A stretch of 63,118 nucleotides of DNA from a virus. The stretch lies in the IMG/VR virus record IMGVR_UViG_3300010042_000001, positions 1-63,118 of that record. One strand, given 5' to 3'. The notes under the pieces are model-generated. The model saw nothing but the letters and a program-made list of their open reading frames with translations, was not told the origin of the DNA and did not search any database. This document shows, piece by piece, positions 1 to 63,118 of the stretch. Position numbers and translations under genes: made by a program. Every line of letters begins with the position of its first letter. The stretch's first letter is position 1.

Positions 1-68
1 CGGCAGGATTTGAACCTGCGACCCTCTGCTCCCAAAGCAGTAGCGCTGCCAGACTGCGCCACATTCCG
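1..68 (-). tRNA. tRNA-Pro(UGG), 5' part only (end-repeat copy)
   Basis: This is the minus-strand 5' portion of the tRNA that is complete at 62987-63063. It includes the C1-G72 acceptor strand, the GCGC D-stem and the anticodon loop. It appears here only because the window ends overlap, so it is not a second gene. Confidence 0.85.
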
Positions 69-123
69 AAATCGCCGATGGGCACAGTCATCTGTTTCCA
101 GAGGCACAGGCCAGGTGCAAACA
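1..123. repeat. Terminal direct repeat, left copy
   Basis: Bases 1-123 are identical to 62996-63118. The repeat cuts through tRNA-Pro, and an RNA operon reads across the join. I therefore read it as the overlap of a closed circular assembly, not as a biological terminal repeat; a lambda-type terminase also argues for cos packaging. The unique genome is about 62,995 bp. Confidence 0.9.
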
Positions 124-230
124 GCCGTTGCTCGCGAACAAGCTAAGGGCCCACCGACTGGCAAGGTGTCACAGGCGCCAGCCGACTGACTTGTGTCGGT
201 GCGGGTCTGCGTACCCCTTGCTTGGAACCG
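69..230 (-). ncRNA. Structured 5' leader of the stable-RNA operon
   Basis: No convincing reading frame lies here. The inferred minus-strand transcript starts near 224 and folds into at least two hairpins. One has a 7-bp stem (CACCGAC 152-158 with GTCGGTG 195-201) enclosing TGGC/GCCA. The other has CTGTTT 92-97 with AAACAG 119-124 enclosing GCAC/GTGC. It is the 5' leader of tRNA-Pro; any separate function is unknown. Confidence 0.45.
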
Positions 231-258
231 AATATAGCACACGCTAAAAAGACGTCAA
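231..258 (-). promoter_or_regulatory. Sigma-70 promoter with operator, leftward (stable-RNA operon)
   Basis: On the minus strand TTGACG (258-253), a 16-bp spacer and TATATT (236-231) form a near-consensus promoter. The spacer and -10 hold a copy of the dispersed operator (TATAGCACACGCTAAA, 233-248). The promoter points away from terL towards tRNA-Pro, so it should drive the RNA genes independently of the late transcript. Confidence 0.75.
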
Positions 259-2429
259 CCCAAATTTGCCTGCGCGTGCCGTCTTTTTTTCCGTTGCGCC
301 GGCCGCAGAACGCGGACCTCGGTAGGTTCCTCGCGCGTGTTGGCCTGCAGCGCGCGGCGGTCGGCCCTGGAAACCACCAGGCTGTTGCAGTAGAGCGGCG
401 AGAGCTGCGGCGGCACCTTGTTCCAGTCCACAATCTTGTCCAGGCCCAGGTAGAGGTAGCCGGCGTGGGCCATGCGGCACAAGTCGAATGTCTCGTTGCG
501 CGAGCGCACCTTGCTCCAGATCCCGCTCGGGCTGCGCGTCTCGGCGTGCAGCTCGTCGAAAAACGCCACCGTGACCCAGCCGTTTGGCCACAGGGTCGGA
601 TGCTTCGCCTTGGGGAAGTGGATGTAGCCAGGGCCTGGCACATCGCGGCGTAGCCCGCTGTCCACGGCGTCCGAGAGCAGGTGCGGATTGCAGAGCTGCA
701 GCGGCACGTCGCCGGTCTTGTTGTTCTTGCCCCCCACCATGGTCTCTCGGACCACTGGCGCCTTGGGCTCGCTCCCGCCCTTGTACAGCATCACGCGGTT
801 GTGCAGCTTCTCGGCGCGCAGGCGACGATACCAGGCGTATGCGTTGTGCGATACGCCCTCGCCGCCGTTGGCCTTGCCCTCACCGCCGGTATCGACCACG
901 GTCATGAGTGGGTGCAGCTCGCGCTCGTCCTCGGGTGTGCGCCACGTGGCCCGAATCACCAGCTCGGTGATCTGGTCCCAGTCCTCGGCAAAACCGGCGG
1001 GGTCGATTGGTGCGAACTCCTGGCCAGAGCCAGGGCGCCGCGAGTCCTTGATCTCGAAGCGGTCGATGACCCAGCGCTCGCCGTAGGGCCCGACTGCCTG
1101 GATCTGCACCACGAACCGCGCATTGGACCCACCCTGCACGTCCACTGCCGCGATGATGCAGCGGGTTTCCGCCGGTGCGATGTACTGCGGGTATTCCTCC
1201 GCACGCTCGGCAGGGGTCTTTCCGTTGGTCTTGTTGTCGGCCAGGTGCCTTGGCATGTAGGGCATGCCTTGGTCGGTGTTGACCGTCTGCTTTAGCTTTT
1301 CTTCCGAGCCCGTCAGCGCGAATTCCTGGAGCCCGATCAGGTACTGCTCGATCAGCGATTGCCAGGACTGGTATGCAGCGGCCACGCCCCCGAGCCAGTA
1401 GCCCTGCATGGTCGATTGCCGGCTCTCCCCGTGCATGTTTCCTTCGTCGTCCACAGTGACGCCATCGGGCAACCAGACACCGCGCGAATTCATTTCCTTT
1501 TTGGCGCTCGGTTGGATGATGCAGCCGTGGACGGGGCACGTGATGCGCGCATAGTGCTTGGCCATCACCGGTGCGCTGATCGAGCGCGCGTCTCGCACCA
1601 GTTCCTCGAAGGACGGCATGCGGAACAGGTCCAGGCCAGGGGCCGCCTCGAAGTACGAGCCGCACTCGGGACAGCGCCAGTACCAGCGCTGGCGGTCGGT
1701 GCGGTTGTAGAGCGACAAGATCCCGCCGGTGGGTGGGGCCTCGTGCGCCGTGGCCGGCGTCCAGCCGAGCGAGATCAGCGGCTTGCCGGGGCTGGACTCG
1801 ACTAGGGTCATGCCGCGCGACATGAAGGTGGTTGTGCGCTTTTTGGCCAAGTCGAACAACGGGCCTTCGCCGTCCACGTTCTCCGCGTTGGCCATCCGGT
1901 CGATATCGGTGATGGCCACGTACCGGTAGGTCGAGCCGGAGACGTTGGAGACGGTCGGCCAGGCGATCCGCACCCACATGCCATGCCGGAACATTTTGTC
2001 GAACGTGTTGTCGTCCACGTCGCGCGCCGAGAGCATGGCCTTGACGTGCTCGCTGTGGCGCAGCGCGCTGTCGATATCGGTCTTGGAGAATTCCCGCGCC
2101 TTGTCCTTGTTCATCTGGATGAACAGCATGTTGCCGGGGTCGTTCACCACGTTGTGGCACATCCAGCCGACCAGCAGGCCGGCGGTCTTGCCTGTCCGTG
2201 CCGGCCCGACGAACACAGTGGCCTCGTGCAGCCGCGAGGCGAGCGAATTGAGGGGGGCGACCATGTAGGGCGTCGCGCTCGCGCTCCAGGCCGTGGCCGC
2301 ACCGCCGGTCTGCTTAATGATCAGGTTTTTGGCGGCCCCTTCGCTGATGGTCACTCGGTTGGGTGCCTTGAACGCTTCGTACCCGCTGCACACATCGCTC
2401 AGCGCGCGCCCGTAGTGCGACTGGTCCAT
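255..2429 (-). CDS. terL: Terminase large subunit, GpA family
   Basis: The ATPase-nuclease that cuts concatemeric DNA and drives it into the prohead through the portal. The protein has 724 residues, close to lambda gpA (641) and its relatives. Walker A is GPARTGKT at residues 75-82, and a Walker B-like segment ending ITDIDRM follows near 175. A CPEC...CPVHGC zinc-finger-like pair sits in the middle. The C-terminal nuclease half shows the AAVDVQGG and VVDTGG acidic motifs. It overlaps terS by one base (TAATG junction). The GpA family is associated with cos-type packaging; no cos site can be proven here. Confidence 0.93.
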   Translation of the reverse strand: MDQSHYGRALSDVCSGYEAFKAPNRVTISEGAAKNLIIKQTGGAATAWSASATPYMVAPLNSLASRLHEATVFVGPARTGKTAGLLVGWMCHNVVNDPGNMLFIQMNKDKAREFSKTDIDSALRHSEHVKAMLSARDVDDNTFDKMFRHGMWVRIAWPTVSNVSGSTYRYVAITDIDRMANAENVDGEGPLFDLAKKRTTTFMSRGMTLVESSPGKPLISLGWTPATAHEAPPTGGILSLYNRTDRQRWYWRCPECGSYFEAAPGLDLFRMPSFEELVRDARSISAPVMAKHYARITCPVHGCIIQPSAKKEMNSRGVWLPDGVTVDDEGNMHGESRQSTMQGYWLGGVAAAYQSWQSLIEQYLIGLQEFALTGSEEKLKQTVNTDQGMPYMPRHLADNKTNGKTPAERAEEYPQYIAPAETRCIIAAVDVQGGSNARFVVQIQAVGPYGERWVIDRFEIKDSRRPGSGQEFAPIDPAGFAEDWDQITELVIRATWRTPEDERELHPLMTVVDTGGEGKANGGEGVSHNAYAWYRRLRAEKLHNRVMLYKGGSEPKAPVVRETMVGGKNNKTGDVPLQLCNPHLLSDAVDSGLRRDVPGPGYIHFPKAKHPTLWPNGWVTVAFFDELHAETRSPSGIWSKVRSRNETFDLCRMAHAGYLYLGLDKIVDWNKVPPQLSPLYCNSLVVSRADRRALQANTREEPTEVRVLRPAQRKKRRHAQANLG

Positions 2430-8452: not shown

Positions 8453-8932
8453 CTACCCCTGCGGTAATTCGTCTGGGACGGCATCCTCCACCAGAATGGA
8501 CCCCCCATTTTTGTGGGGCGTTTTTTCGGGGAGTTTTGGCCTACCCCTTTTTGTGGGGGCAATTGGTGGGATCAATCCGGCCACCTCCAATTCCCGGCAG
8601 ATTTGCTGGACCCGTCTTTCGCTCATGCGAACGTGGACCGAAATGTGCTGGGTGGGGAGGCCGGCCTGCAGCAGCTCGCCGATTTGCTGGCGCTGCGTCC
8701 AGACCTCGTACTGCTGCAGCCGAGGAATACTCAGGTGCTTCCCTCCCCATTCCTGGGTGAGCTTTTTCGCGGACGATTCGCCCAGTAGCGCGACCAGGTG
8801 GTGGCCGTCCTTGACCGTCTTCGGGATGTAGCACTTGTGGAGGTCGCCGTACCACGCGGCCAACCGGATCGTTGCGGAGAAGCCAATGAGGGCCGAAATG
8901 TCGTCGAGCGTTGTGTTCTTTAGCGTCATCAT
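8453..8932 (-). CDS. Mor-like transcriptional activator
   Basis: 159 residues. It shows the Mor/C-family layout: an N-terminal helical domain (DDISALIGFSATIRLAAWYG), the LVALLGESSAKKLTQEWGG core, SIPR, and a C-terminal helix-turn-helix (HISVHVRMSERRVQQICREL). Mor of phage Mu and its relatives activate middle or late promoters that lack a -35 by binding just upstream of the -10. AAAGGAAAG precedes the ATG; a second ATG at 8929 is equally possible. The paired promoters at 54900 and 59223 are the natural targets (inference). Confidence 0.75.
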   Translation of the reverse strand: MMTLKNTTLDDISALIGFSATIRLAAWYGDLHKCYIPKTVKDGHHLVALLGESSAKKLTQEWGGKHLSIPRLQQYEVWTQRQQIGELLQAGLPTQHISVHVRMSERRVQQICRELEVAGLIPPIAPTKRGRPKLPEKTPHKNGGSILVEDAVPDELPQG

Positions 8933-8948: not shown

Positions 8949-9067
8949 TTAGCGTTCCAGACGCATTCGACGCATTTGGGGCACTTTTCCTAAACTCTTT
9001 CTATGCATACAGGGAACAATAGTAAAAGTGGGTCAAATGCGTCGAATGCGTCGAAAACTAACGCTAA
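8949..9067. promoter_or_regulatory. Inverted iteron-like region between regulator and primase
   Basis: Two tandem 9-mers (GACGCATTC 8960, GACGCATTT 8969) are mirrored by AAATGCGTC 9035 and GAATGCGTC 9044. They lie within 29-bp arms (8960-8988, 9024-9052) that match at 26 of 29 positions. Outside these, TTAGCGTT (8949-8956) mirrors AACGCTAA (9060-9067). The centre contains TATGCATA. The right end overlaps the primase stop codon. P4-type initiators bind short repeats near their gene, so this could be an origin or an operator. Confidence 0.6.
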
Positions 9068-21407: not shown

Positions 21408-21674
21408 TCAGGTGGGTGGAACATCGCACGCGCACATCGTGGCCAGCACCTCGACGGTGATGGCTGCTGTGCCGTGCTTTTTGGAAATCGTCGCCGACGC
21501 CGCTGCGATCTTGCTGGCCAGGTCGGCTCGGCAGGACCGGCGGTTACAGCCGGCCAGTTGGTAGAGGTAGGCAACCGTGGTGCCCGCCTCGGTAGCGAAC
21601 TCTTGTCGCTTGGCGTCAGTGCCCAGGTCTCGCAAGAGAGCCAGGAGCGGGGTGGTGGGTGGTGTATTGCGCAT
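21408..21674 (-). CDS. Cro-like helix-turn-helix regulator
   Basis: 88 residues. LLALLRDLGTDAKRQEFATE followed by AGTTVAYLYQLA and later SKIAAAS is a helix-turn-helix of the Cro/YdaS kind, with the recognition helix around TVAYLYQL. Its own promoter (21682-21710) carries an operator copy, which fits autoregulation, and the mRNA appears leaderless. I infer that it binds the dispersed 16-bp dyad; no other early protein is as good a candidate. Confidence 0.75.
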   Translation of the reverse strand: MRNTPPTTPLLALLRDLGTDAKRQEFATEAGTTVAYLYQLAGCNRRSCRADLASKIAAASATISKKHGTAAITVEVLATMCACDVPPT

Positions 21675-21681
21675 GGAAAGT

Positions 21682-21717
21682 ATTTTCGCATACGCTAAAA
21701 AACTTTGCAACGCTAAA
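21682..21717 (-). promoter_or_regulatory. Autoregulatory promoter-operator of the Cro-like gene
   Basis: On the minus strand TTGCAA (21710-21705), a 17-bp spacer and GAAAAT (21687-21682). The ATG lies 7 bases beyond the -10, so the transcript should start at or next to the AUG. A full operator (21684-21699) covers the spacer and -10; a shortened copy with a 2-bp smaller gap overlaps the -35 (21704-21717). Confidence 0.65.
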
Positions 21718-26904: not shown

Positions 26905-27207
26905 TCACAGGCCCAGCGAGCGCCGCTCACGCAGCCTGCGCACACGGTCAGCCGATGGGCGGGGGCCAGGCCGCGCGGCATCTTTCTTGTTGCCCCACGA
27001 GAACATGGCGATTACCGGCCGCTGGCGGTCGTCCTCTGCCCAGCCCGACACATGCACCGTCTTGATCGTCCGCATGGTCTTGATCCAGCGGGTCACGGTC
27101 GGCACGGCCAGGCCCGTCATCGCGGACAGATCCTTGTAGGTGTGCTTGCCGGCGCAGAGAGCAGTCTGCATGCGCAGGGTCAGCTCTGGTGTGTTTCTTA
27201 CAGCCAT
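26905..27207 (-). CDS. Winged-helix-like DNA-binding protein
   Basis: 100 residues. KHTYKDLSAMTGLAVPTVTR followed by WIKTM is a clear helix-turn-helix with the recognition helix around AVPTVTRWIK, like IclR/MarR-type wings. The C-terminus is arginine-rich. Could control a subset of early genes; its binding site is unknown. Confidence 0.7.
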   Translation of the reverse strand: MAVRNTPELTLRMQTALCAGKHTYKDLSAMTGLAVPTVTRWIKTMRTIKTVHVSGWAEDDRQRPVIAMFSWGNKKDAARPGPRPSADRVRRLRERRSLGL

Positions 27208-27511: not shown

Positions 27512-27690
27512 GGTGATCTCCTGTTGATTTCGTGTTGCGATGAAACGTACTGTACATACATTTTCCCGTTACGACAAGTTTTTTAGCGATTGCGATGTTA
27601 GATAAATTTCTTTTCGCACTCGCTAAACGTGGTATGCTCCGCTCGCCTTTTACCCAGGTATCACTTTTCAACCTTTTTGGAGTCACATAC
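27512..27690. promoter_or_regulatory. Divergent control region with two operators
   Basis: Separates the leftward early operon from the rightward replication genes. Two operator copies face each other: TTTAGCGATTGCGATG (27582-27597) and TTTCGCACTCGCTAAA (27612-27627). Rightward, a TATGCT -10 sits at 27633-27638 with a poor -35. Leftward, TTGTCG and TACAGT separated by 17 bp (about 27574 to 27552) are possible. Likely the main early switch between the two arms. Confidence 0.65.
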
Positions 27691-31264: not shown

Positions 31265-31298
31265 TTGACAAGTTATTTCGCATTCGCTAAACTCTGTA
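31265..31298 (+). promoter_or_regulatory. Operator-controlled promoter of the membrane/TAXI cassette
   Basis: TTGACA (31265-31270), 17-bp spacer, TAAACT (31288-31293). The operator TTTCGCATTCGCTAAA (31276-31291) covers the spacer and part of the -10. Bases 31271-31298 are identical to 38875-38902, a 28-bp exact repeat in front of another operon. Confidence 0.85.
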
Positions 31299-36994: not shown

Positions 36995-37425
36995 GCACAG
37001 AGCAGGCACTGGCTGTCCTGCGCGCACGCACGGCGGCAAAGGAAAACGAGCTGGTGGCGCACATGCGCAAGCAGCCGAACGGTATGACCGTGCGGGAGAT
37101 CGCGGACCACATGCACCTGGGCATCGAGCGCGCGAAAAAGTACGGGCGACAACTGCTGGCCCAGAAGCGGATCTACATCGCCGAGTGGCGACCGTGTGAT
37201 GGCACGCTCGGCCAGCGAGCCCAGGTCTTCCGGGTCGGCAACCTGCCCAGCGTGAAGCGGCCCAAGGCAAAGCCAAGGGTTGTTGTCCAGCGGCAAAGCC
37301 GAGCCCGCCGTCGCAAAGCGGACCCGGATCAACACGCAGCGCGTCTTGACCGCGCAAACACCAGACGTCGTAAACCACCCAAGCCGGACATGCTCCTGGC
37401 TGCTTTCTTTGGACCCACCGCATGA
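36991..37425 (+). CDS. Winged-helix DNA-binding protein
   Basis: 144 residues from a GTG start. MTVREIADHMHLGIERAKKY is a helix-turn-helix with a wing-like tail, and the C-terminus is arginine- and lysine-rich. It sits between VRR-NUC and SNF2 helicase genes; it may load them or regulate this unit. Confidence 0.65.
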   Translation: MSTEQALAVLRARTAAKENELVAHMRKQPNGMTVREIADHMHLGIERAKKYGRQLLAQKRIYIAEWRPCDGTLGQRAQVFRVGNLPSVKRPKAKPRVVVQRQSRARRRKADPDQHAARLDRANTRRRKPPKPDMLLAAFFGPTA

Positions 37426-38876
37426 GCCGCATTTTCGTCCCGCGCGAGTACCAGCACCTGATGCTGGATTTCGGCATGGAGCACGAGCGCTGCAACTGGT
37501 TTGTAGGCATGGGCTTGGGCAAGACCAGTAGCGGCGTGGAGCTGTTCGACCGCCTACGCCTGCTGGGTGAAGTCCAGCGGCTGCTGGTGCTGGCGCCCAA
37601 GCGCGTGGCCGAGTCATCCTGGCCAGGGGAGGTCACGAAGTGGGGTGAGTCGTTCGGCCACCTCAAGGTCGCCGCAGCCATCGGCACGCCAGAAAAGCGC
37701 CTGGCCGCGCTGCGCAGCACACCGGACATTCTCACAATCAACTACGACAACATCGAGTGGCTGATGGAGCAGTACGGCGAGCACTGGCCATTCGACATGG
37801 TGATAGCGGACGAGAGCACGCGATTGAAGGGCTTGCGGATCAGCTACCAACAGCGCAGGAAAAAGGACGGCACGCTCGGCAAGGAATTCATGCAGGGTCA
37901 AGGTGCCTCGCGCGCCAAGGCCCTTGCCGGCATAGCGCACAAGAAAGTCCGCCGGTGGGTCAACCTGACCGGTAGCCCAGCGCCGAACGGCCTGGTGGAC
38001 CTGTGGGGCCAGCAGTGGTTTATCGACCGAGGCGAGGGCCTCGGCAACTCGTTCGACCACTTCAAGAAACGCTGGTTCACGCAGAAGATCGGCAGCAGCC
38101 GCGAGCAGGAGCGCCTGGAGCCCAAGGCGCACGCGCTGCGCGAGATCCGGCGCGAAGTGAAGAAACACAGCATTGTGGTGGATGCGCGCGACTGGTTCGA
38201 TATCAAGGCGCCCATCGTCTCCCACCAGATGATCACGCTGCCGCCGGCCGCCCGCAGGCAGTACCGGGAAATGGAAAAGGAATTTTTCACCTGGGTGGGC
38301 GAGCACCCGCTGGAGGTCTTCGCCGCCGGCCCCAAGATGAATAAGTGCCTGCAGTTGGCCAGTGGCTCTGTGCTCTACAACCACGAGGGTGATTGGGCCC
38401 CTGTCCACAAAGAGAAGCTGGAGGCCCTGCGCAGCATCGTCGAGGAAACGAACGGCGAGCCGCTGCTGGTTGCCTACCAGTACCGCGCTGATCTGGAGCG
38501 AATCTTGAAAGAGTTCCCGCAGGCCCGCAGCCTGCAGAAGAACAGCGACCGCACGATCAAGGCATTCCAGGCCGGCGAGATCCCCATGCTCGTCGTCCAT
38601 CCAGCCAGCGCTGGCCACGGGTTGGATCTGCAGCATAGCTGCCACATCATGGTGGACTACTCCAGCGGCTGGAACCTAGAGCTGGACGAGCAGGTGATCG
38701 AGCGCATCGGGCCCACCCGGCAAGCGCAGATCGGCCGCAACGTGGCGGTGTTCCGTTACCGCATCGTGGCTCAGGACACACTCGAAGAGACGTTCATCCT
38801 GCCGCTGCTGGAGCAGAAGGCCGGATTCCAAGAGGCCCTGAAAAATGCAATGAAACGCCAACGAGCCCTTGCGTAG
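37422..38876 (+). CDS. SNF2-type helicase
   Basis: 484 residues. Walker A GMGLGKTS (about 29-36), DEAH-box-like VIADESTRLKG, the VNLTGSPAPNG motif III, and the C-terminal helicase motifs (HPASAGHGLDLQ, IERIGPTRQ). Short phage SNF2 proteins of this kind remodel DNA-protein complexes or replication forks. Ends at TAG 38876, inside the next promoter. Confidence 0.9.
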   Translation: MSRIFVPREYQHLMLDFGMEHERCNWFVGMGLGKTSSGVELFDRLRLLGEVQRLLVLAPKRVAESSWPGEVTKWGESFGHLKVAAAIGTPEKRLAALRSTPDILTINYDNIEWLMEQYGEHWPFDMVIADESTRLKGLRISYQQRRKKDGTLGKEFMQGQGASRAKALAGIAHKKVRRWVNLTGSPAPNGLVDLWGQQWFIDRGEGLGNSFDHFKKRWFTQKIGSSREQERLEPKAHALREIRREVKKHSIVVDARDWFDIKAPIVSHQMITLPPAARRQYREMEKEFFTWVGEHPLEVFAAGPKMNKCLQLASGSVLYNHEGDWAPVHKEKLEALRSIVEETNGEPLLVAYQYRADLERILKEFPQARSLQKNSDRTIKAFQAGEIPMLVVHPASAGHGLDLQHSCHIMVDYSSGWNLELDEQVIERIGPTRQAQIGRNVAVFRYRIVAQDTLEETFILPLLEQKAGFQEALKNAMKRQRALA

Positions 38877-38902
38877 TTATTTCGCATTCGCTAAACTCTG
38901 TA
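38869..38902 (+). promoter_or_regulatory. Operator-controlled promoter, second copy
   Basis: TTGCGT (38869-38874), 17-bp spacer, TAAACT (38892-38897), with the operator TTTCGCATTCGCTAAA at 38880-38895. The 28 bp 38875-38902 are identical to the block at 31271-31298. The -35 lies in the last codons of the helicase gene. Confidence 0.8.
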
Positions 38903-49451: not shown

Positions 49452-49859
49452 TTATACCTCAAGAAAACGAAACACACACAAGAAAAAATCGGTATCCACA
49501 ACATCGTTGAAGTGGACCACGGGCGTCGCCTCGAAACCTCCACCGTCGCCGCTGTGGCGAAAAATCACCTGGTAGTCCTCGCCGTGGATATTGAGGGTCA
49601 TGAGCTTGCCTGGCACTGCGGCCCAGAGCTTGACTGCTTCAACCAGGTCACTGGTCATCCACGTGTCCTCGTTCTCTGGCTGCAGTGTTATCTCACGGCC
49701 CTTGATCTTGGCGCCGATATGTACGATGGGCGCACCGGTCAAGCCAAACTCCACCGTCTGCCGTACAGGACTCCAGTTGTTCCGGTCTACCCACATCAGG
49801 TCTCGGTGCAGACTGATCGTGTCCGTTCCATCGGTAAGTGTGATCGTTGGCGTGGGCAT
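49452..49859 (-). CDS. Minor tail protein, tape-measure neighbour
   Basis: 135 residues, beta-rich (TVEFGLTGAPIVHIGAKIKG; GEDYQVIFRHSGDGGGFEAT). Starts one base after the tape measure stop, in the place where many siphophages have a small distal tail or connector protein. Exact family unassigned. Confidence 0.65.
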   Translation of the reverse strand: MPTPTITLTDGTDTISLHRDLMWVDRNNWSPVRQTVEFGLTGAPIVHIGAKIKGREITLQPENEDTWMTSDLVEAVKLWAAVPGKLMTLNIHGEDYQVIFRHSGDGGGFEATPVVHFNDVVDTDFFLCVFRFLEV

Positions 49860-54090: not shown

Positions 54091-54846
54091 TTAGACGACG
54101 GGATCTTGCATCACGACGATAAACGGAGCGTTCTTGCCGACAGGCGTTTTGAGCTTGCCGGTCATGGACACGTTGTTGAAGTCGTCGGCCAGAAAGTCGA
54201 ACGCGGAGTCAGCGGCCACGACAGCCTCCCACACCGTGACCGTGACCTGTTGACCGTCAGCCAGGTTGATGCCGTCGAAAATTATTTCGGCGCGAACGTC
54301 AACCTTGGTGGCGCCGGAAATGACCACGCCCGTGGCGGCCTTGTACGCACCGGAGACGTTCAAGCTGGCCGCGTCAGCGATGGCGCTGGCCTCCAGAACC
54401 ATGAGCAGGCCCAGTGGTTTGTTCAGCTTGTAGTCCGTGCCTTCGACATAGGTCGTGCTGCCGGCAGTGTTTTCCACGACGATAACGCCGTCCAGGTTCT
54501 TTTTGCCGATATCGACCCACGAGCCTTTTTTGATGGTTACCGGTGCGTCAACCAGCGTGCCAGAAACCTGGTTCAACGCTTCGGAGGTGCCCAGGAGCGC
54601 CATCAGCAGCACGTCGCCCACGATTTCCTTGAGGTCCATCGTGAAGTCGGCAGGCTGGTTCAGTTGCACGGTTTCGAGCACCTGGCCGTAGTCTTCGCGG
54701 CCCTTGCTGGTCGATTCCTTGGTCTCGACGTTGGGCTTGATCTCGAATTTGTCGGCCTTGTACGGGCCCTTGAGACCCTGCTTGACACCGGCCACGGTGC
54801 GGTTGATGAAAATATCGCCAGCGCCCAAAAAGCTACGTGCTGCCAT
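54091..54846 (-). CDS. Major tail (tube) protein
   Basis: 251 residues from the ATG at 54846 (GGAGAATC upstream; the earlier ATG at 54873 lacks a site). Contains GDIFINRTVAGVKQGLKGPY, an ADFTMDLKEIVGDVLLMALL segment and beta-rich domains typical of tail tubes. Position, own late promoter and following terminator fit a highly expressed structural protein. Confidence 0.8.
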   Translation of the reverse strand: MAARSFLGAGDIFINRTVAGVKQGLKGPYKADKFEIKPNVETKESTSKGREDYGQVLETVQLNQPADFTMDLKEIVGDVLLMALLGTSEALNQVSGTLVDAPVTIKKGSWVDIGKKNLDGVIVVENTAGSTTYVEGTDYKLNKPLGLLMVLEASAIADAASLNVSGAYKAATGVVISGATKVDVRAEIIFDGINLADGQQVTVTVWEAVVAADSAFDFLADDFNNVSMTGKLKTPVGKNAPFIVVMQDPVV

Positions 54847-54899
54847 TTCGATTCTCCAAAGGTTGGCCGCCATAGGGGCAGCGAGATAAAACAGTCGCG

Positions 54900-54943
54900 A
54901 GTATAGGTGGGATGCTTTCCCGATTGCCGACCGGACAATTTCG
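54900..54943 (-). promoter_or_regulatory. Putative late promoter P54
   Basis: On the minus strand a -10 TATACT (54905-54900) with no -35; the box CGAAATTGTCCGGTCGG lies at 54943-54927, with 27 bp between TTGTCC and the -10. The same box and spacing occur at 59223-59266. Suggests an activator-dependent promoter for tail genes. Confidence 0.75.
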
Positions 54944-54945
54944 TA

Positions 54946-55404
54946 TTATTGACCTCCTGGTAGTGTTTCCGCGATATCAACGGTGAAGTGCAAAACGGCC
55001 ATCACGAACGGCTGACCATCGGAACGCGCACCAATGTCGCGGCCACGGTAGTCCAGGGCGCCCACCCGGAAACCCAAACGGGTCTTCTCGAAAATGACTT
55101 TTTTCAAATCGCGCAGCGCCTGGTGGGCCGCTGTATTGGGTCGATCTGGGTCACACCGGAGGTACGCCACCAGGGCGTAATCCACACCGGTTTTTATCTC
55201 GGTGCGGTTGCGTGTATCACCGGGGTGGTCTAAGCCTTCGATAATCGAAATACACGGTATCTCGTCGTCGTCCACGGCCCGTTTCCCTTGAAACACCCGC
55301 AGGCCGATATCGGTTTCAAAACCATCGGCGATTTTGATCGTGCTGACCAGGGACTCGATATGCAGCGATACCGCCTCGGTCGTCTTGAGAATAATGTCAG
55401 CCAT
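54946..55404 (-). CDS. Tail completion/terminator-like protein
   Basis: 152 residues, mixed alpha/beta with a VRVFQG-like start region (GFETDIGLRVFQGKRAVDDD) and HFTVDIAETLPGG at the end. Occupies the slot of the gpU-like tail terminator upstream of the tube gene. Placement by synteny. Confidence 0.7.
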   Translation of the reverse strand: MADIILKTTEAVSLHIESLVSTIKIADGFETDIGLRVFQGKRAVDDDEIPCISIIEGLDHPGDTRNRTEIKTGVDYALVAYLRCDPDRPNTAAHQALRDLKKVIFEKTRLGFRVGALDYRGRDIGARSDGQPFVMAVLHFTVDIAETLPGGQ

Positions 55405-56083
55405 TCAGGACTTTCTGGAGTTCGATTTGTGCATTGTCGATCAGCTCGCGCTCCAGGTCCGCTGCCACCTCGTCCTCAATCAGCGGGATCTGATAGCGGA
55501 ACAGTTGGTACACGCTGGGCCCGAGCAGGCTGTTCACCTTGCCGTTGGCATCCCGCCGAAAAACGAGGTAGTTGCCTTCCGTATCTTTGCGGCCGGGGAG
55601 CGCGAACGCAGATCGCAATGACTTGCGCGAGCCCTTGTTGACTTCGGCGCCACGGCCGGCGGCCTTCTCATTGGGCTGGATGCCGAGTGTGGGGCGGCCA
55701 ATGCGCTCCGTCCACCCTGGCCACCGGCCGAATTTCTTGCCCATGCCGAGGATCAGCGCGTTGTTCCACGTTACCGGCTTGACCTCCTGCGTGGCGTCGT
55801 AGTGCGAGAGCTGGGTCTGGAACCCCTTACCGCCGGGGGACGTGATCGATGCCTCGGGCTTGCTGTTGGTGGCCCGCTCGACCGTCATCCGCCGGCGCAG
55901 GTAGTCGTCTGTGATGTTGATCCCGGCGCTGATGCGACGACGGGAGAGATCGTAGGTGCGCTCCACAACCGCATTCAACGCAGTCACCACCACGCGGCCT
56001 GTGACAGCCTCTGGGATCTGCCCGATGGTGGCGGCCAGGCGCTCCACCTGGCGTGTGTCTGCGGTGAAAATGAACGAGGTCAT
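55397..56083 (-). CDS. Minor tail protein Z-like
   Basis: 228 residues. N-terminal helix (VERLAATIGQIPEAVTGRVV) and the middle LSRRRISAGINITDDYLRRR match the prophage tail protein Z (PF06763) pattern. Sits between FII-like and U-like genes, as in lambda. Acts in tail completion. Confidence 0.8.
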   Translation of the reverse strand: MTSFIFTADTRQVERLAATIGQIPEAVTGRVVVTALNAVVERTYDLSRRRISAGINITDDYLRRRMTVERATNSKPEASITSPGGKGFQTQLSHYDATQEVKPVTWNNALILGMGKKFGRWPGWTERIGRPTLGIQPNEKAAGRGAEVNKGSRKSLRSAFALPGRKDTEGNYLVFRRDANGKVNSLLGPSVYQLFRYQIPLIEDEVAADLERELIDNAQIELQKVLNG

Positions 56084-56406
56084 GGCAGTGCGATCACGAT
56101 AAATCGGGGGTTCATGCCCGAGTCCTCGATCCGCTTTTCCAAGCGGTACACGGGCCCTGTCGGCAGGCCCGCCGCGTCCACGAATTGGAACGTCTCTTTG
56201 CCCTTGGGTGCCAGCTCAAACGGCACCGTGGCCACGTCCCTGCGGACGGTTGCATAGCCCCGGTTTCCTGCGCCTTCTCCGTCCACGCCGTCGAATTCAA
56301 CGTCTTTTTCAAGGTTGATTTTTACGACAGCACCACGGAAAAGAGCCCCCTCGCCCAGGAGGGAAAGGAGGCTCTGGGCTGCGCGCTGAAACAGCGCCAG
56401 GGTCAT
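56080..56406 (-). CDS. Head-tail connector, FII-like
   Basis: 108 residues. Sits next to the capsid gene, overlapping both neighbours by ATGA, and contains PFELAPKGKETFQFVDAAG and a polar N-terminus. In lambda the FII protein joins the tail to the head here. Sequence support is modest; synteny is strong. Confidence 0.7.
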   Translation of the reverse strand: MTLALFQRAAQSLLSLLGEGALFRGAVVKINLEKDVEFDGVDGEGAGNRGYATVRRDVATVPFELAPKGKETFQFVDAAGLPTGPVYRLEKRIEDSGMNPRFIVIALP

Positions 56407-57416
56407 GGTGCCGAGCTGTCCAGCTCGATCACTGCCTCGGGCAGCGTGTTCAGGTACAGCGGGCAGGAGACGGCCAGGCCGTCAATCGCCGAACCCCAGT
56501 CGTTCTGCTTCTGCTTGGCGTAGTAGGGCAGACCCATGGAACCCACCGTTTCGATGAACGGCGCAGGCGCAAACAGCGTCTGGAACATGTTCGGCACACC
56601 GGTGGGGAAGGCATAGCCCTTACCAGCCGGGATGAAGTCGCCCGCATCGGTGCCGCCTTCGTACACGGTGTACCGCACGCCAGCGAACTCGAAGTCGTCT
56701 TCGTTCTGTTGCTGGCGCAGGTAGGCGCCGTTGTTCCACAGCTCCCAAGCCTTTTTCATCTTGTCGTGGCCCACCAGCTTGTCGAAGTAGTCGGCCGCCA
56801 CGTAGGCTTTCACGCCCGTGAACGAACGACCGCCCAGCTTCGCCTTGATCATGCGCTTGATCGTCAGGCTGGTGGCCTTCGGATCGGTCGTGCTCGCTGG
56901 GTTGTCGATGTTGGTCTTGAGCGTCTGCTTGGTCATGCCGAACAGGTCGTACATGTCGTACAGCACAGAGGTGCCATCCGCGTCCAGCACCTGGCCCTTG
57001 ATACCGCCCACGCGGTGGTACTCGTGGGTCAGGTCCATCTGGTTTTTGGCCAGTGCCATGCGCTCGCGCACCAGTTGCAGGATCGGCACCGTTTCGTCTT
57101 CCGAGCCGAAGGCACGAACGCCCAGAATCTCGTCCGCTTGGACGTTCCAGGATTCGGCCATGTGCACGGCGGCTACAGGGATCAGCTTGCGGCCCTTCGT
57201 GTGCACCGGCTCAGGCACGCCACCGCGAGGCGACGTAGGCACCAGCTTCAGCTCGGAGCCCTTGCGTTCGATCATCATCACGACGCCGGTCATACCGGCG
57301 GACGAGTACAGGCCGCTGTCGCCGATCTGGGTCGGGACGCGCGGAATGTCGATGATGGTCTGCGTGAGTGCCGACAGGCGGAACGCATCGTTGTTGAAAA
57401 TGTCAAGAGTTGCCAT
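56403..57416 (-). CDS. Major capsid protein, lambda gpE family
   Basis: 337 residues. Starts MATLDIFNNDAFRLSALTQT followed by TQIGDSGLYSSAGMTGVVMM, the gpE-family (PF03864) N-terminus; the middle carries GGIKGQVLDADGTSVLYDMY and LFGMTK. Builds the icosahedral shell with the decoration protein encoded just upstream. Confidence 0.92.
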   Translation of the reverse strand: MATLDIFNNDAFRLSALTQTIIDIPRVPTQIGDSGLYSSAGMTGVVMMIERKGSELKLVPTSPRGGVPEPVHTKGRKLIPVAAVHMAESWNVQADEILGVRAFGSEDETVPILQLVRERMALAKNQMDLTHEYHRVGGIKGQVLDADGTSVLYDMYDLFGMTKQTLKTNIDNPASTTDPKATSLTIKRMIKAKLGGRSFTGVKAYVAADYFDKLVGHDKMKKAWELWNNGAYLRQQQNEDDFEFAGVRYTVYEGGTDAGDFIPAGKGYAFPTGVPNMFQTLFAPAPFIETVGSMGLPYYAKQKQNDWGSAIDGLAVSCPLYLNTLPEAVIELDSSAP

Positions 57417-57460
57417 TTTGTTTTCTCTCCAGGTGAGTCAAGCTCGTTGTGGTACTTGGC

Positions 57461-58120
57461 TCACAGAGCCGGGGTGGCGACCTTGGGCAGGCCGGCCGTG
57501 CCACGGACCTTGATACCCTTGGTCAGCAACTGCGCTTCCGCCGTTGCGTCGAGGCCCGTCAGTTGCACGCGCGAGACTTCCGCGTCGCCCGTGATACCAA
57601 CCGCTTTCGCGTCGCCGGTGATCGCCGGCAGGCCGTTGTACAGGATCGCATCGGCCGAGCCGGCAGCGCCAGCAGCGGTGTACGGGATGTACTTGCCCGA
57701 GCCAGCGGCCACGGTGATGATCCACTCGTCGCCAGCCGCAGCGGGGGTGCCGCCAGCCGTCAACGTGAAACCAATGCCCGCCTTGCTGAATGCGACGCCG
57801 GTGGTTCCGGTGCCGATCTTCACGCCGTTGGGATCTTCCACGTCGAACTTGGTCGGCGCGGTGAAGGTCAGTTTATAGGCGCCAGGGATGCCAGCCGCAC
57901 CGACCGTGATCGTGCCGAACGTCGGGTTACCCACGTTGCCGGCAGTAGCCGCAGCGGAGCCCGTGGTCGCGGTATCGACCTTGGTCAGAATGGTGCCCGA
58001 CTTCACCGCCGTGCCCGTCTGGGTCACGATGATGTTGTCACGGCTGCGGTGGTTATTGGCTTCGCTAACGAGGAAGTCAATGACCGGCAGCAGGCCAGGG
58101 TAGAGGTGAACGGTTGCCAT
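57461..58120 (-). CDS. Head decoration protein, gpD-like
   Basis: 219 residues, longer than lambda gpD (110). The SRDNIIVTQTGTAVKSGTIL region and the Ala/Gly/Thr-rich, proline-containing beta structure fit the decoration family (PF02924); the extra central part seems inserted. Lies between protease and capsid genes as expected. Confidence 0.8.
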   Translation of the reverse strand: MATVHLYPGLLPVIDFLVSEANNHRSRDNIIVTQTGTAVKSGTILTKVDTATTGSAAATAGNVGNPTFGTITVGAAGIPGAYKLTFTAPTKFDVEDPNGVKIGTGTTGVAFSKAGIGFTLTAGGTPAAAGDEWIITVAAGSGKYIPYTAAGAAGSADAILYNGLPAITGDAKAVGITGDAEVSRVQLTGLDATAEAQLLTKGIKVRGTAGLPKVATPAL

Positions 58121-58143
58121 GTTGAAAGTCCTTTCGTACTTGC

Positions 58144-59196
58144 TTACTTGCTTGCTGCGGCCGACTTCTCGGCTTTGCTCTTTTCAGCAGCCCAATAGCC
58201 GGTGGCGGAAAAATCGCCTGCCTTGCTCTTGTTCTGCGGAGGCACGTTGTTCACGTGCTCGTCCTTGTCAGCCATCTTGTCCAGGAGCTGCGCGCGCAGC
58301 GTGGCGAGGGACATGCCAGCTTTGATCGCCTTGCCGGCCATGTCGGGCTGGTCGGCCAGCTTGCACAGCGTCACGGCCTCCTTGGCGTGGGCCAGGGCGG
58401 CGGTCAGGTCGCCTTGTGTGGCGCAACGCACCGAGAGCACCTTGGCATGTGCATCCAGGCCGGCGGTCTTGGCTTGCGCAGTCACCTGCTCAGCCGTCAC
58501 AGGCGCCTTGGCGGCCTCGTCCTCTTCAACGACTGGCGGGACCACGGGCGGCTCGACGGGTGGTGTGTTCTCGGCCTTCGGAGCGGGCTTGGCCTTGGCG
58601 TAAACCTTGGCCACGTTCGCGGGCAGATCGGCACGGGCCAGATCGAAAGACGCCTGCGCCTCGATAGCGTCGGAAACGTCGGTGGCCAGGCCGTTGGTCT
58701 TGGCTTCGGAGGCCGTAAACCAGGTGTCCTTTTTCATGAGCGGCGTGAGGTCTTCCGATTTCATGCCGCTGCGCGAGGTGTACGTGGCCAGGAGCGACGT
58801 ACCGATCTTGTCCAGGGTGTCCGCTGTGTCCCGCAGTTCGTCGGCATTGCCGGCGACGATGGTCCAGGGGTTGTGGAGCATCAGAAACGAGTTCGCAGGC
58901 ATCGAACGCTTCGAGCCCGCCATGAAAACCACGCTGGCGGCCGAGGCGGCAACGCCCATGGCGACCGTTTCGATTTTCTTGCCGGAGGCCACCAGGATGT
59001 TGTACATCGCGATACCGGCCATCACGTCGCCGCCGGGGGAATTGATTTCCACCCGCACGTCGTCGCCTTCGATGGCTTTGATTTGGTCGGCGAAGTCCTT
59101 GGCCTGCACGCCCCAGAATCCGATCTCTTCGTAGAGTTCGATTACTGCGGGCTTGTTGGCACCGACACTAGCTTTGATTTTGAAGCAGGGGCGCAT
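58144..59196 (-). CDS. ClpP-like head maturation protease
   Basis: 350 residues. INSPGGDVMAGIAMYNIL and GVAASAASVVFMAG (nucleophile S85), MLHNP (H108) and a NGLATDVSDAI region form the ClpP catalytic triad. After about residue 200 a Pro/Val/Ala-rich, charged extension probably acts as the scaffold, as in lambda gpC/Nu3. Cleaves portal and scaffold during head maturation. Confidence 0.9.
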   Translation of the reverse strand: MRPCFKIKASVGANKPAVIELYEEIGFWGVQAKDFADQIKAIEGDDVRVEINSPGGDVMAGIAMYNILVASGKKIETVAMGVAASAASVVFMAGSKRSMPANSFLMLHNPWTIVAGNADELRDTADTLDKIGTSLLATYTSRSGMKSEDLTPLMKKDTWFTASEAKTNGLATDVSDAIEAQASFDLARADLPANVAKVYAKAKPAPKAENTPPVEPPVVPPVVEEDEAAKAPVTAEQVTAQAKTAGLDAHAKVLSVRCATQGDLTAALAHAKEAVTLCKLADQPDMAGKAIKAGMSLATLRAQLLDKMADKDEHVNNVPPQNKSKAGDFSATGYWAAEKSKAEKSAAASK

Positions 59197-59222
59197 GGGT
59201 TGGTCCTTTTCAGAATGGCCGG

Positions 59223-59266
59223 AGTCTAAGCCATATCCTGAAAAGGGAACCGACCGGACAATTTCG
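59223..59266 (-). promoter_or_regulatory. Putative late promoter P59
   Basis: On the minus strand a -10 TAGACT (59228-59223) and the box CGAAATTGTCCGGTCGG (59266-59250), with 27 bp between TTGTCC and the -10, exactly as in P54. The start codon of the protease lies about 20 bases beyond the expected start site. Confidence 0.75.
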
Positions 59267-59268
59267 CG

Positions 59269-59589
59269 TTATTTCGGTGGGTATTGCCAAATAACCGGGC
59301 CGGCTCCAAAAAGCCAACCGAACTCCGCGACCTTCTCACCATCGGCACGGATCTGGATCTCCAGAGTGGCCATATCTGCAAGGGAAAGCTCCCCGCGCAA
59401 GAGCTGGACGGGCTCACCTGGGAACGTCTGGCACTGGCTGAAGCACAGGTATTCCGGCACCCAGCCATCAAAACGACGATAACCGAGGACGGTATTACCG
59501 GAGATAGCCGTGTACTTTACCGGAGCTGCCGAGGCAGGTGCGGTAATAAAAACGGCGGCCGAAACCAGCTCAATAAGCAGCGATGACAT
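59269..59589 (-). CDS. Secreted protein, unknown
   Basis: 106 residues with a signal peptide (LLIELVSAAVFITAPASA), then a polar domain with two cysteines (YLCFSQCQ). Overlaps the lysozyme gene by 20 bases. Could be a periplasmic lysis accessory; no motif proves this. Confidence 0.6.
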   Translation of the reverse strand: MSSLLIELVSAAVFITAPASAAPVKYTAISGNTVLGYRRFDGWVPEYLCFSQCQTFPGEPVQLLRGELSLADMATLEIQIRADGEKVAEFGWLFGAGPVIWQYPPK

Positions 59590-62986: not shown

Positions 62987-63063
62987 TGGTCGGAACGGCA
63001 GGATTTGAACCTGCGACCCTCTGCTCCCAAAGCAGTAGCGCTGCCAGACTGCGCCACATTCCG
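62987..63063 (-). tRNA. tRNA-Pro(UGG)
   Basis: 77 nt on the minus strand with encoded CCA. Acceptor CGGAATG/CGTTCCG with the C1-G72 pair typical of proline tRNAs, D-stem GCGC/GCGC, anticodon loop TTTGGGA (anticodon TGG), T-arm GCAGG-TTCAAAT-CCTGC. The pair 27-43 is A-A. Reads CCA (and by wobble CCG) codons; may supplement host decoding. Confidence 0.95.
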
Positions 63064-63118
63064 AAATCGCCGATGGGCACAGTCATCTGTTTCCAGAGGC
63101 ACAGGCCAGGTGCAAACA
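62996..63118. repeat. Terminal direct repeat, right copy
   Basis: Identical to bases 1-123 (see the left copy). Contains most of tRNA-Pro and part of its leader. Confidence 0.9.

What the first reader, a model, noticed from the sequence alone, without database searches (positions are those of the whole stretch)
54900..59266. Paired late promoters with a fixed 27-bp box-to--10 distance
CCGACCGGACAATTTCG occurs exactly at 54927-54943 and 59250-59266; in both, 27 bp separate GGACAA from a minus-strand -10 (TATACT, TAGACT). There is no -35 at the normal distance. This is what an activator-dependent promoter looks like, and the genome encodes a Mor-like activator at 8453-8932.
Basis: partly seen in the sequence, partly recalled or inferred. 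Interest (0 to 1): 0.75.

Follow-up and report, generated by a model that had tools for sequence, protein, structure and literature searches.

The report
Mor-type activator-dependent phage late promoters
Two matching DNA boxes in this bacteriophage look like switches that turn on its capsid and tail genes late in infection; many related phages carry the same switch, each in its own private spelling, probably read by an unusual relative of phage Mu's Mor activator protein.

Summary
On the minus strand, CGAAATTGTCCGGTCGG occurs exactly twice, each time just after a stop codon and 21 bp before a -10 (TAGACT before the head-protease gene, TATACT before the major-tail gene), with no -35 at 16-18 bp.

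It is not chance. The same two genes carry a box plus -10 in all 19 related genomes I counted, at a 21-22 bp gap. The consensus is CGAAAT-N4-CCGNNN, with box 'dialects' CCGCAG, CCGTTA/G, AGCGTTA, CCACAG, and CGGTCG in this window. Within a genome the two boxes differ at 1.1 of 16 positions, against 4.8 after shuffling (0 of 20,000 permutations reach it), while the spacers are nearly unrelated. That indicates one trans-acting, co-evolving DNA-binding protein. A blind DNA-only scan of IMG/VR placed 39 of 51 matches in front of four late genes (random control 9 of 153).

The box lies at about -50 to -34, where Mu Mor binds (-51 to -36). The window's Mor-like gene is the best candidate activator. 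Two differences from Mu: the box has no convincing dyad, and the protein has a tandem-duplicated Mor core with one helix-turn-helix. Binding and start sites are untested. I found no description of this system.

The parts
59250..59266 (-). Activator box CGAAATTGTCCGGTCGG of the head-protease promoter (about -50 to -34)
   Evidence: exact match; kept in L017; same place in relatives
59223..59228 (-). -10 hexamer TAGACT of the head-protease promoter
   Evidence: 22 bp after the 16-bp box core; identical in L017
54927..54943 (-). Activator box CGAAATTGTCCGGTCGG of the major-tail promoter
   Evidence: exact match; kept in L018
54900..54905 (-). -10 hexamer TATACT of the major-tail promoter
   Evidence: 22 bp after the 16-bp box core; identical in L018
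58144..59196 (-). Head maturation protease gene (Clp-type), first gene of one late unit; ATG about 26 nt after the -10
   Evidence: PHROG 94/133, Pfam PF00574
54091..54846 (-). Major tail protein gene; start taken at 54846 (MAARSF..., as in relatives), 53 nt after the -10; an in-frame upstream ATG lies at 54873
   Evidence: PHROG 807 5.6e-43; alignment
8453..8932 (-). Mor-like activator gene (159 aa), proposed reader of the boxes; two Mor-core repeats and one HTH
   Evidence: PHROG 836 'late transcriptional activator' 1.3e-16; Pfam Mor 26.4 bits vs cut-off 24.9; hhalign to Mu Mor/C 99.7%; repeat 95.9%; AF2
54946..55404 (-). Tail terminator gene upstream of the tail box (its stop is 2 bp before the box)
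   Evidence: PHROG 5078
59269..59589 (-). 106-aa ORF at the end of the lysis cassette, upstream of the protease box (its stop is 2 bp before the box)
   Evidence: no PHROG or Pfam match

Best explanation
The two sites are sigma70-type late promoters that lack a -35 element. A phage-encoded Mor-like protein binds the 16-17 bp box (about -50 to -34), recruits or isomerises host RNA polymerase at the weak -10, and so switches on the head unit (from the protease gene) and the tail unit (from the major tail protein) late in infection. The box sequence is private to each phage lineage because it co-evolves with its protein. Shown here: box, spacing, -10, placement, conservation in relatives, within-genome co-variation, and co-occurrence with the Mor-like gene. 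Inferred: that the Mor-like protein is the binder, that sigma70 RNA polymerase is used, late timing, and the start sites (about 59216 and 54893).
For: Same box plus -10 with a 21-22 bp gap in front of protease and tail genes in 19 of 19 genomes where I counted both sites. Within-genome box mismatches 1.11/16 against 4.80 permuted, 0 of 20,000; spacers 13.89 against 14.96 of 20. A DNA-only scan of IMG/VR gave 51 matches, 39 in front of adaptor/portal, protease, tail or post-tape-measure genes, against 9 of 153 random positions. Close relatives L017 and L018 keep the box, spacing and -10 while the spacer changes. Four homologous tail genes without a box: three lie in genomes with no PHROG 836 match (G028, G030, G031), the fourth (G029) is ambiguous. 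Mor-like gene found in window, ACF1, PCA1, G012, G023, G024-G027, G033 and G035, all with boxes. Box position matches the Mu Mor site at -51 to -36 (passages of PMC4287176). Two other candidate regulators track the box less well: 88-aa protein r=0.36 and 100-aa HTH protein r=0.04, against Mor 0.62 and 0.78 on the same genomes.
Against: No binding, footprint or RNA data. The box lacks a convincing dyad, unlike Mu Mor/C sites. The Mor distance-box distance correlation (r=0.70) is matched or exceeded by several structural and replication genes, so shared ancestry cannot be excluded. The window's recognition helix (SERRVQQICRELEV) is the same as that of G013, whose only box-like site is of another dialect. 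The PDB fold search found no significant match, only short HTH-sized ones with low scores. Many box-bearing contigs show no Mor-like gene, though those are fragments. The top PWM hit in the window is a different, antisense site at 37473.
Confidence: 0.8

Rival explanations
1. The promoters are real and activator-dependent, but another phage protein reads the box, for example the Cro-like 88-aa protein at 21408-21674 or the 100-aa HTH protein at 26905-27207.
For: Both have orthologues in many of the box-bearing phages; the 100-aa protein has weak HTH matches.
Against: Their divergence tracks the box less than Mor's does (r=0.36 and 0.04 against 0.62 and 0.78 on the same genomes). A separate palindrome family (TTTAGCGAATGCGAAA type) lies just upstream of the 88-aa gene and in front of plus-strand units, a likelier target for it. 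Neither has a Pfam or PHROG assignment as an activator.
Confidence: 0.12
2. The box acts as RNA (antitermination, processing or translation signal at gene ends) rather than as a DNA site upstream of a promoter.
For: In the window and several relatives it starts right after a stop codon and would be transcribed by read-through.
Against: A fixed 21-22 bp distance to a -10-like hexamer although the spacer sequence is free; it also occurs inside a coding gene downstream of the tape-measure gene in relatives, and 7-12 nt separate the -10 from the ATG at most adaptor sites, which suits a transcription start.
Confidence: 0.04
3. The 17-bp repeat is a chance or recently duplicated sequence with no function.
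For: By length alone a 17-bp repeat is not extreme: 3 of 100 shuffles gave at least 2 matches within 3 mismatches; shuffles hold about one repeated 17-mer each.
Against: Conserved place, spacing and -10 in 19 genomes with unrelated spacers.
Confidence: 0.02

Closest known systems
Phage Mu middle promoter Pm and its activator Mor
   Same: A -10 without a -35; activator site of about 16 bp at -51 to -36 (here about -50 to -34); activator of the Mor family (Pfam PF08765).
   Different: Mu's site is a dyad (two 5-bp inverted repeats, GC-rich 6-bp spacer) bound by a dimer and drives the middle operon; the box here shows no convincing dyad, and the protein carries two Mor-core repeats and one HTH per chain. 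The target genes are capsid and tail genes of a siphovirus-type module, not a Mu-like transposable phage.
Phage Mu late promoters (lys, I, P, mom) and activator C
   Same: Several late promoters in one genome switched on by one Mor-family activator. Mu Plys also contains TAGACT (read; that this is its -10 is my reading), the -10 of the window's protease promoter.
   Different: C sites are dyad elements according to PMC4287176; a direct read of Plys shows no CGAAAT-N4-CCGCAG box at this spacing.
P2-type late promoters with Ogr/Delta (recalled)
   Same: Activator site upstream of a -10 replaces the -35; several promoters in one phage.
   Different: The recalled TGT-N12-ACA element centred near -55 is not present at either site.

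Membership tests
Mor-activated promoter (Mu Pm type) | -10 hexamer present, -35 absent | tested here: met
   at most 2 of 6 -35 matches at 16-18 bp spacing
Mor-activated promoter (Mu Pm type) | activator site centred near -43.5 | tested here: met
   16-bp box centred at about -42.5, taking the -10 as -12 to -7; Mu position from PMC4390567 abstract and PMC4287176 passages
Mor-activated promoter (Mu Pm type) | dyad-symmetric element with 5-bp inverted repeats | tested here: not met
   PWM dyad test over 15 centres: the box centre (8.5) scores as shuffled columns; the lowest fraction, 0.003, is for 4 pairs off-centre at 12.0, with 15 centres tried
Mor-activated promoter (Mu Pm type) | transcription requires the Mor protein | not testable with these tools
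   needs reporter or in vitro transcription
Mor-activated promoter (Mu Pm type) | proximal UP element at -57 to -52 | not tested
   -
Mor family protein (PF08765) | score above the curated cut-off | tested here: met
   window 26.4 vs 24.9 bits; of the 8 relatives scanned, 5 lie above (38.3, 39.3, 26.4, 27.9, 27.3) and 3 below (17.3, 17.5, 15.6)
Mor family protein (PF08765) | profile similarity to Mu Mor and C | tested here: met
   hhalign probability 99.7%, 110 columns (the A4 side of that comparison itself contained Mor and C, so it is not independent); PHROG 836 also hits Mu Mor (1.2e-10) and C (2.1e-11)
Mor family protein (PF08765) | one Mor core plus one HTH per chain, as in Mu Mor | tested here: not met
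   tandem core repeat, hhalign 95.9%, E 6e-9; AF2 shows helix-helix-strand twice, then the HTH
Mor family protein (PF08765) | fold match to a solved Mor structure | tested here: inconclusive
   no PDB match with E <= 0.001, pTM 0.46; no Mor chain in the PDB sequence search
P2 Ogr/Delta late promoter (definition recalled) | TGT-N12-ACA element | tested here: not met
   TGT is followed after 12 bases by CGG (tail) or CTT (protease)

The most novel reading that the evidence does not exclude
A Mor-derived activator with two duplicated core repeats and a single HTH in one chain works as a built-in pseudo-dimer and therefore reads an asymmetric, two-part box (constant CGAAAT, variable CCGNNN). Each phage lineage has its own box dialect, spread over up to about six late promoters, giving a natural set of mutually orthogonal late-transcription systems.
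Probability: 0.45. Interest if true: 0.75.

Novelty: new variant of a known kind. Interest (0 to 1): 0.62.

Why it matters
How tailed phages with this lambda-like structural module outside the model phages turn on late genes is mostly unknown. This gives a testable regulon for a broad group of phages (named members: Acidovorax phage ACF1, Curvibacter phage PCA1; prophage-like contigs in Vreelandella and Hydrogenophaga records). It assigns a function to a Mor-like gene that is annotated only as a hypothetical protein or late activator, and it offers protein-DNA pairs whose specificity has changed several times. If the pseudo-dimer idea holds, it shows how a symmetric activator became an asymmetric one.

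Tried and rejected
Chance repeat: rejected on relatives, not on repeat length.

Dyad or direct repeat in the box: no convincing case. 15 dyad centres tried, lowest fraction 0.003 for 4 pairs off-centre; 7 direct-repeat shifts, lowest 0.041.

Further copies in the window: none convincing; adaptor, holin, TerS and post-tape-measure regions read by eye. The top PWM hit at 37473 minus lies antisense in the 37422-38876 plus gene, so I treat it as chance.

Mor-box co-divergence as proof: rejected. Mor r=0.70, but the protease gives 0.66, the capsid 0.65, and four genes (62262, 45797, 36172, 47712) score above 0.70 on their own genome sets.

Solved-structure match for the Mor-like protein: none.

Distant Mor-like loci scanned in 40-kb or shorter stretches: no confident box (best 17.1 bits). 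They carry no homologue of the protease, and only one has a weak tail homologue, so they are no test.

Genome contigs via Mor: nothing.

Dropped before the 19-genome count: ACPWH (near-copy of ACF1), L029 (near G015), L059, L060, L047 (same dialect and lineage or same contig as G024 or G023), G018 (weak), and loci with one site only (L003, L017, L018, L032, L036, L072). L055 was kept although its boxes score low (9.4 and 8.2 bits). Box picks upstream of each gene were the best PWM hit within about 170 bp, with a PWM that includes many of these boxes; this bias is not genome-specific.
Full report
WHAT WAS CHECKED. The window is an IMG/VR virus record with a 123-bp terminal repeat, so a circular assembly of about 62,995 bp. 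Late genes lie on the minus strand. In transcription order they are TerS, TerL, (record ends), adaptor, portal, holin, endolysin, 106-aa ORF, head protease, decoration, capsid, neck genes, tail terminator, major tail protein and a 1381-aa gene in the tape-measure place (the tape measure by its homologues in ACF1 and PCA1). Read on the minus strand the box is CGAAATTGTCCGGTCGG. It starts 2 bp after the stop of the 106-aa ORF and 2 bp after the stop of the tail terminator gene. In both places the -10 (TAGACT, TATACT) follows after exactly 21 bp, and then the protease ATG (26 nt on) or the major-tail ATG (53 nt on). Within 3 mismatches there is no third copy. No -35 lies at 16-18 bp.

NOT CHANCE. 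A 17-bp repeat is in itself weak evidence. The relatives decide. Two contigs of another metagenome (L017, L018) keep box, spacing and -10 to the base while the spacer has changed. Acidovorax phages ACF1 and ACPWH and Curvibacter phage PCA1 have, at the same two places, a matching pair of boxes of their own: CGAAATCGTGCCGCAG in ACF1; CGAAATTCGACCGTTG and CGAAATATGGCCGTTG in PCA1. Protein searches brought more relatives, and the sites appear again.

A REGULON WITH DIALECTS. A weight matrix made from 22 boxes, leaving out the genome under test, finds several sites per phage, nearly all on the late strand: in ACF1 the protease, tail, upstream-of-adaptor, lysis-side and an in-gene site after the tape measure, and comparable sets in PCA1, G012, G022, G023, G015, G024, L053 and L059. 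For the window this matrix ranks the two sites 2nd and 3rd, behind an antisense hit at 37473; among the hits listed their box part scores highest (12.2 bits). I then picked the best box within about 170 bp upstream of the protease and tail genes of every relative. In 19 genomes with both sites, the two boxes of one genome differ at 1.11 of 16 positions on average, against 4.80 when tail boxes are dealt out at random (0 of 20,000 permutations as low). Positions 14-16 are identical within the genome in 19 of 19 but vary between genomes. The last 20 bp of the spacers differ at 13.9 of 20, near the permuted 15.0 (215 of 20,000 as low). The gap length (21 or 22) also goes with the genome. Copying of whole promoters would carry the spacer along; selection by one DNA-binding protein would not. 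The second fits.

BLIND TEST. The pattern CGAAAT-N4-CCGCAG-N21/22-[CG]ACA[AC]T, searched as DNA in 2.9 million viral contigs, gave 41 stretches, in which I counted 51 matches, 44 distinct. 39 of 51 lie in front of a tail (19), adaptor/portal (10), protease (7) or post-tape-measure (3) gene. Of the 12 others, 3 have 148 bases or less of sequence behind them. Random positions on the same strands gave 9 of 153. The adaptor/portal class was not used to make the pattern. Some of these loci are relatives fetched before, so the test is independent in method, not wholly in data.

WHO READS THE BOX. With the -10 at -12 to -7 the box covers about -50 to -34. Mu Mor binds -51 to -36 (centre -43.5), replacing the -35, and Pm has a -10 but no -35 (PMC4390567: abstract and passages; PMC4287176: passages). 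Mu C is required at four late promoters (PMC4461284: first of four parts read). The window gene 8453-8932 is a Mor-family protein: PHROG 836, 1.3e-16; Pfam Mor 26.4 bits, cut-off 24.9; hhalign to Mu Mor plus C 99.7% (the query alignment contained Mor and C too, so this adds little of its own). Mor-like matches were found in window, ACF1, PCA1, G012, G023, G024, G025, G026, G027, G033 and G035, each with boxes in that record or in its genome's late region (G024-G026 carry nearly the same phage). G028, G030 and G031 have a homologous tail gene, no PHROG 836 match and no box; G029 has PHROG 836 matches but no box before its tail gene. Contigs with boxes and no Mor-like match are fragments; G015, G017 and G022 stop close to the terminase small subunit, the side on which Mor lies in the complete relatives. 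G013 and G014 have Mor but hold no tail or protease homologue. Two other small regulators are shared by many of these phages; their divergence follows the boxes less well than Mor's, but several structural and replication genes follow as well as or better than Mor, so this correlation does not prove the link.

THE DIFFERENCE FROM MU. The aligned box shows no convincing dyad or direct repeat. The proteins carry a tandem repeat, roughly IG-x-x-A-x-x-R-L-x(4)-G-x-x-x-L-Y-V-P, at about residues 12-39 and 46-72, supported by hhalign (95.9%, E 6e-9) and by the predicted order helix-helix-strand, helix-helix-strand, long helix, HTH (AF2 mean pLDDT 70, pTM 0.46, four sequences). Pfam's Mor model also matches the first repeat of one member (residues 3-38 of L148) and two stretches of PCA1's protein. 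Mu Mor and C lack the first repeat by eye. One HTH on an internal pseudo-dimer would suit an asymmetric box; this is inference. A PDB fold search gave no significant match.

NOVELTY. No listing described this box or regulon; I read listings and, for five papers, passages or parts. The word promoter occurs 0 times in the main texts of the PCA1 and ACF1 papers (term counts). The library lacks most subscription journals. I file it as a new variant of Mor-type activation: it works like a Mor promoter, fails the dyad criterion, and the protein has a changed architecture.

Noticed in passing
31271-31298, 38875-38902, 27607-27634, 21679-21706: A separate intergenic repeat family with the palindrome TTTAGCGAATGCGAAA. 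At 31271 it fills the spacer of a sigma70-like TTGACA-17-TAAACT, as a repressor operator would. One copy lies just upstream of the Cro-like 88-aa gene 21408-21674.
   Followed up: partly
8960-9052: Long inverted repeat (33-nt arms, 88% complementary, 27-nt loop) just upstream of the Mor-like gene; possible operator or attenuator of the activator.
   Followed up: no
L201:2753, L207:3808, and the adaptor sites of L211, L217, L228, L229: At these six adaptor/portal sites the -10 is followed by ATG after only 7-12 nt, so the adaptor mRNA would be leaderless or nearly so.
   Followed up: partly
49452-49859 and homologues (ACF1 39400, G022 25758, PCA1 13624): Relatives have a box inside the gene after the tape measure, in their own dialect, where it must satisfy both protein code and promoter; the window reads AAGCTCTGGGCCGCAG there and seems to have lost it.
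   Followed up: partly
L213, L215, L230: Three IMG/VR contigs carry CGAAATTGGACCGCAG-21-GACACT in front of short genes with a ribosome site, outside the four known late-gene classes.
   Followed up: no
1-123 and 62996-63118: A 123-bp terminal repeat; the tRNA-Pro gene lies across the join, between TerL and the adaptor gene.
   Followed up: no
1-270 (minus strand): Sigma70-like TTGACG-16-TATATT ahead of the tRNA region and adaptor gene; may drive the portal unit, which has no box in this phage.
   Followed up: no
L050, L051: Two MAGs filed as Clostridia and Aeriscardovia hold nearly the same 48.9-kb phage contig, related to that of Vreelandella rituensis; likely binning contamination.
   Followed up: no
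L147 (G027:C103:5406-5846): The Mor-like gene of the Hydrogenophaga MAG has a TGA inside the aligned stretch, near its end.
   Followed up: no
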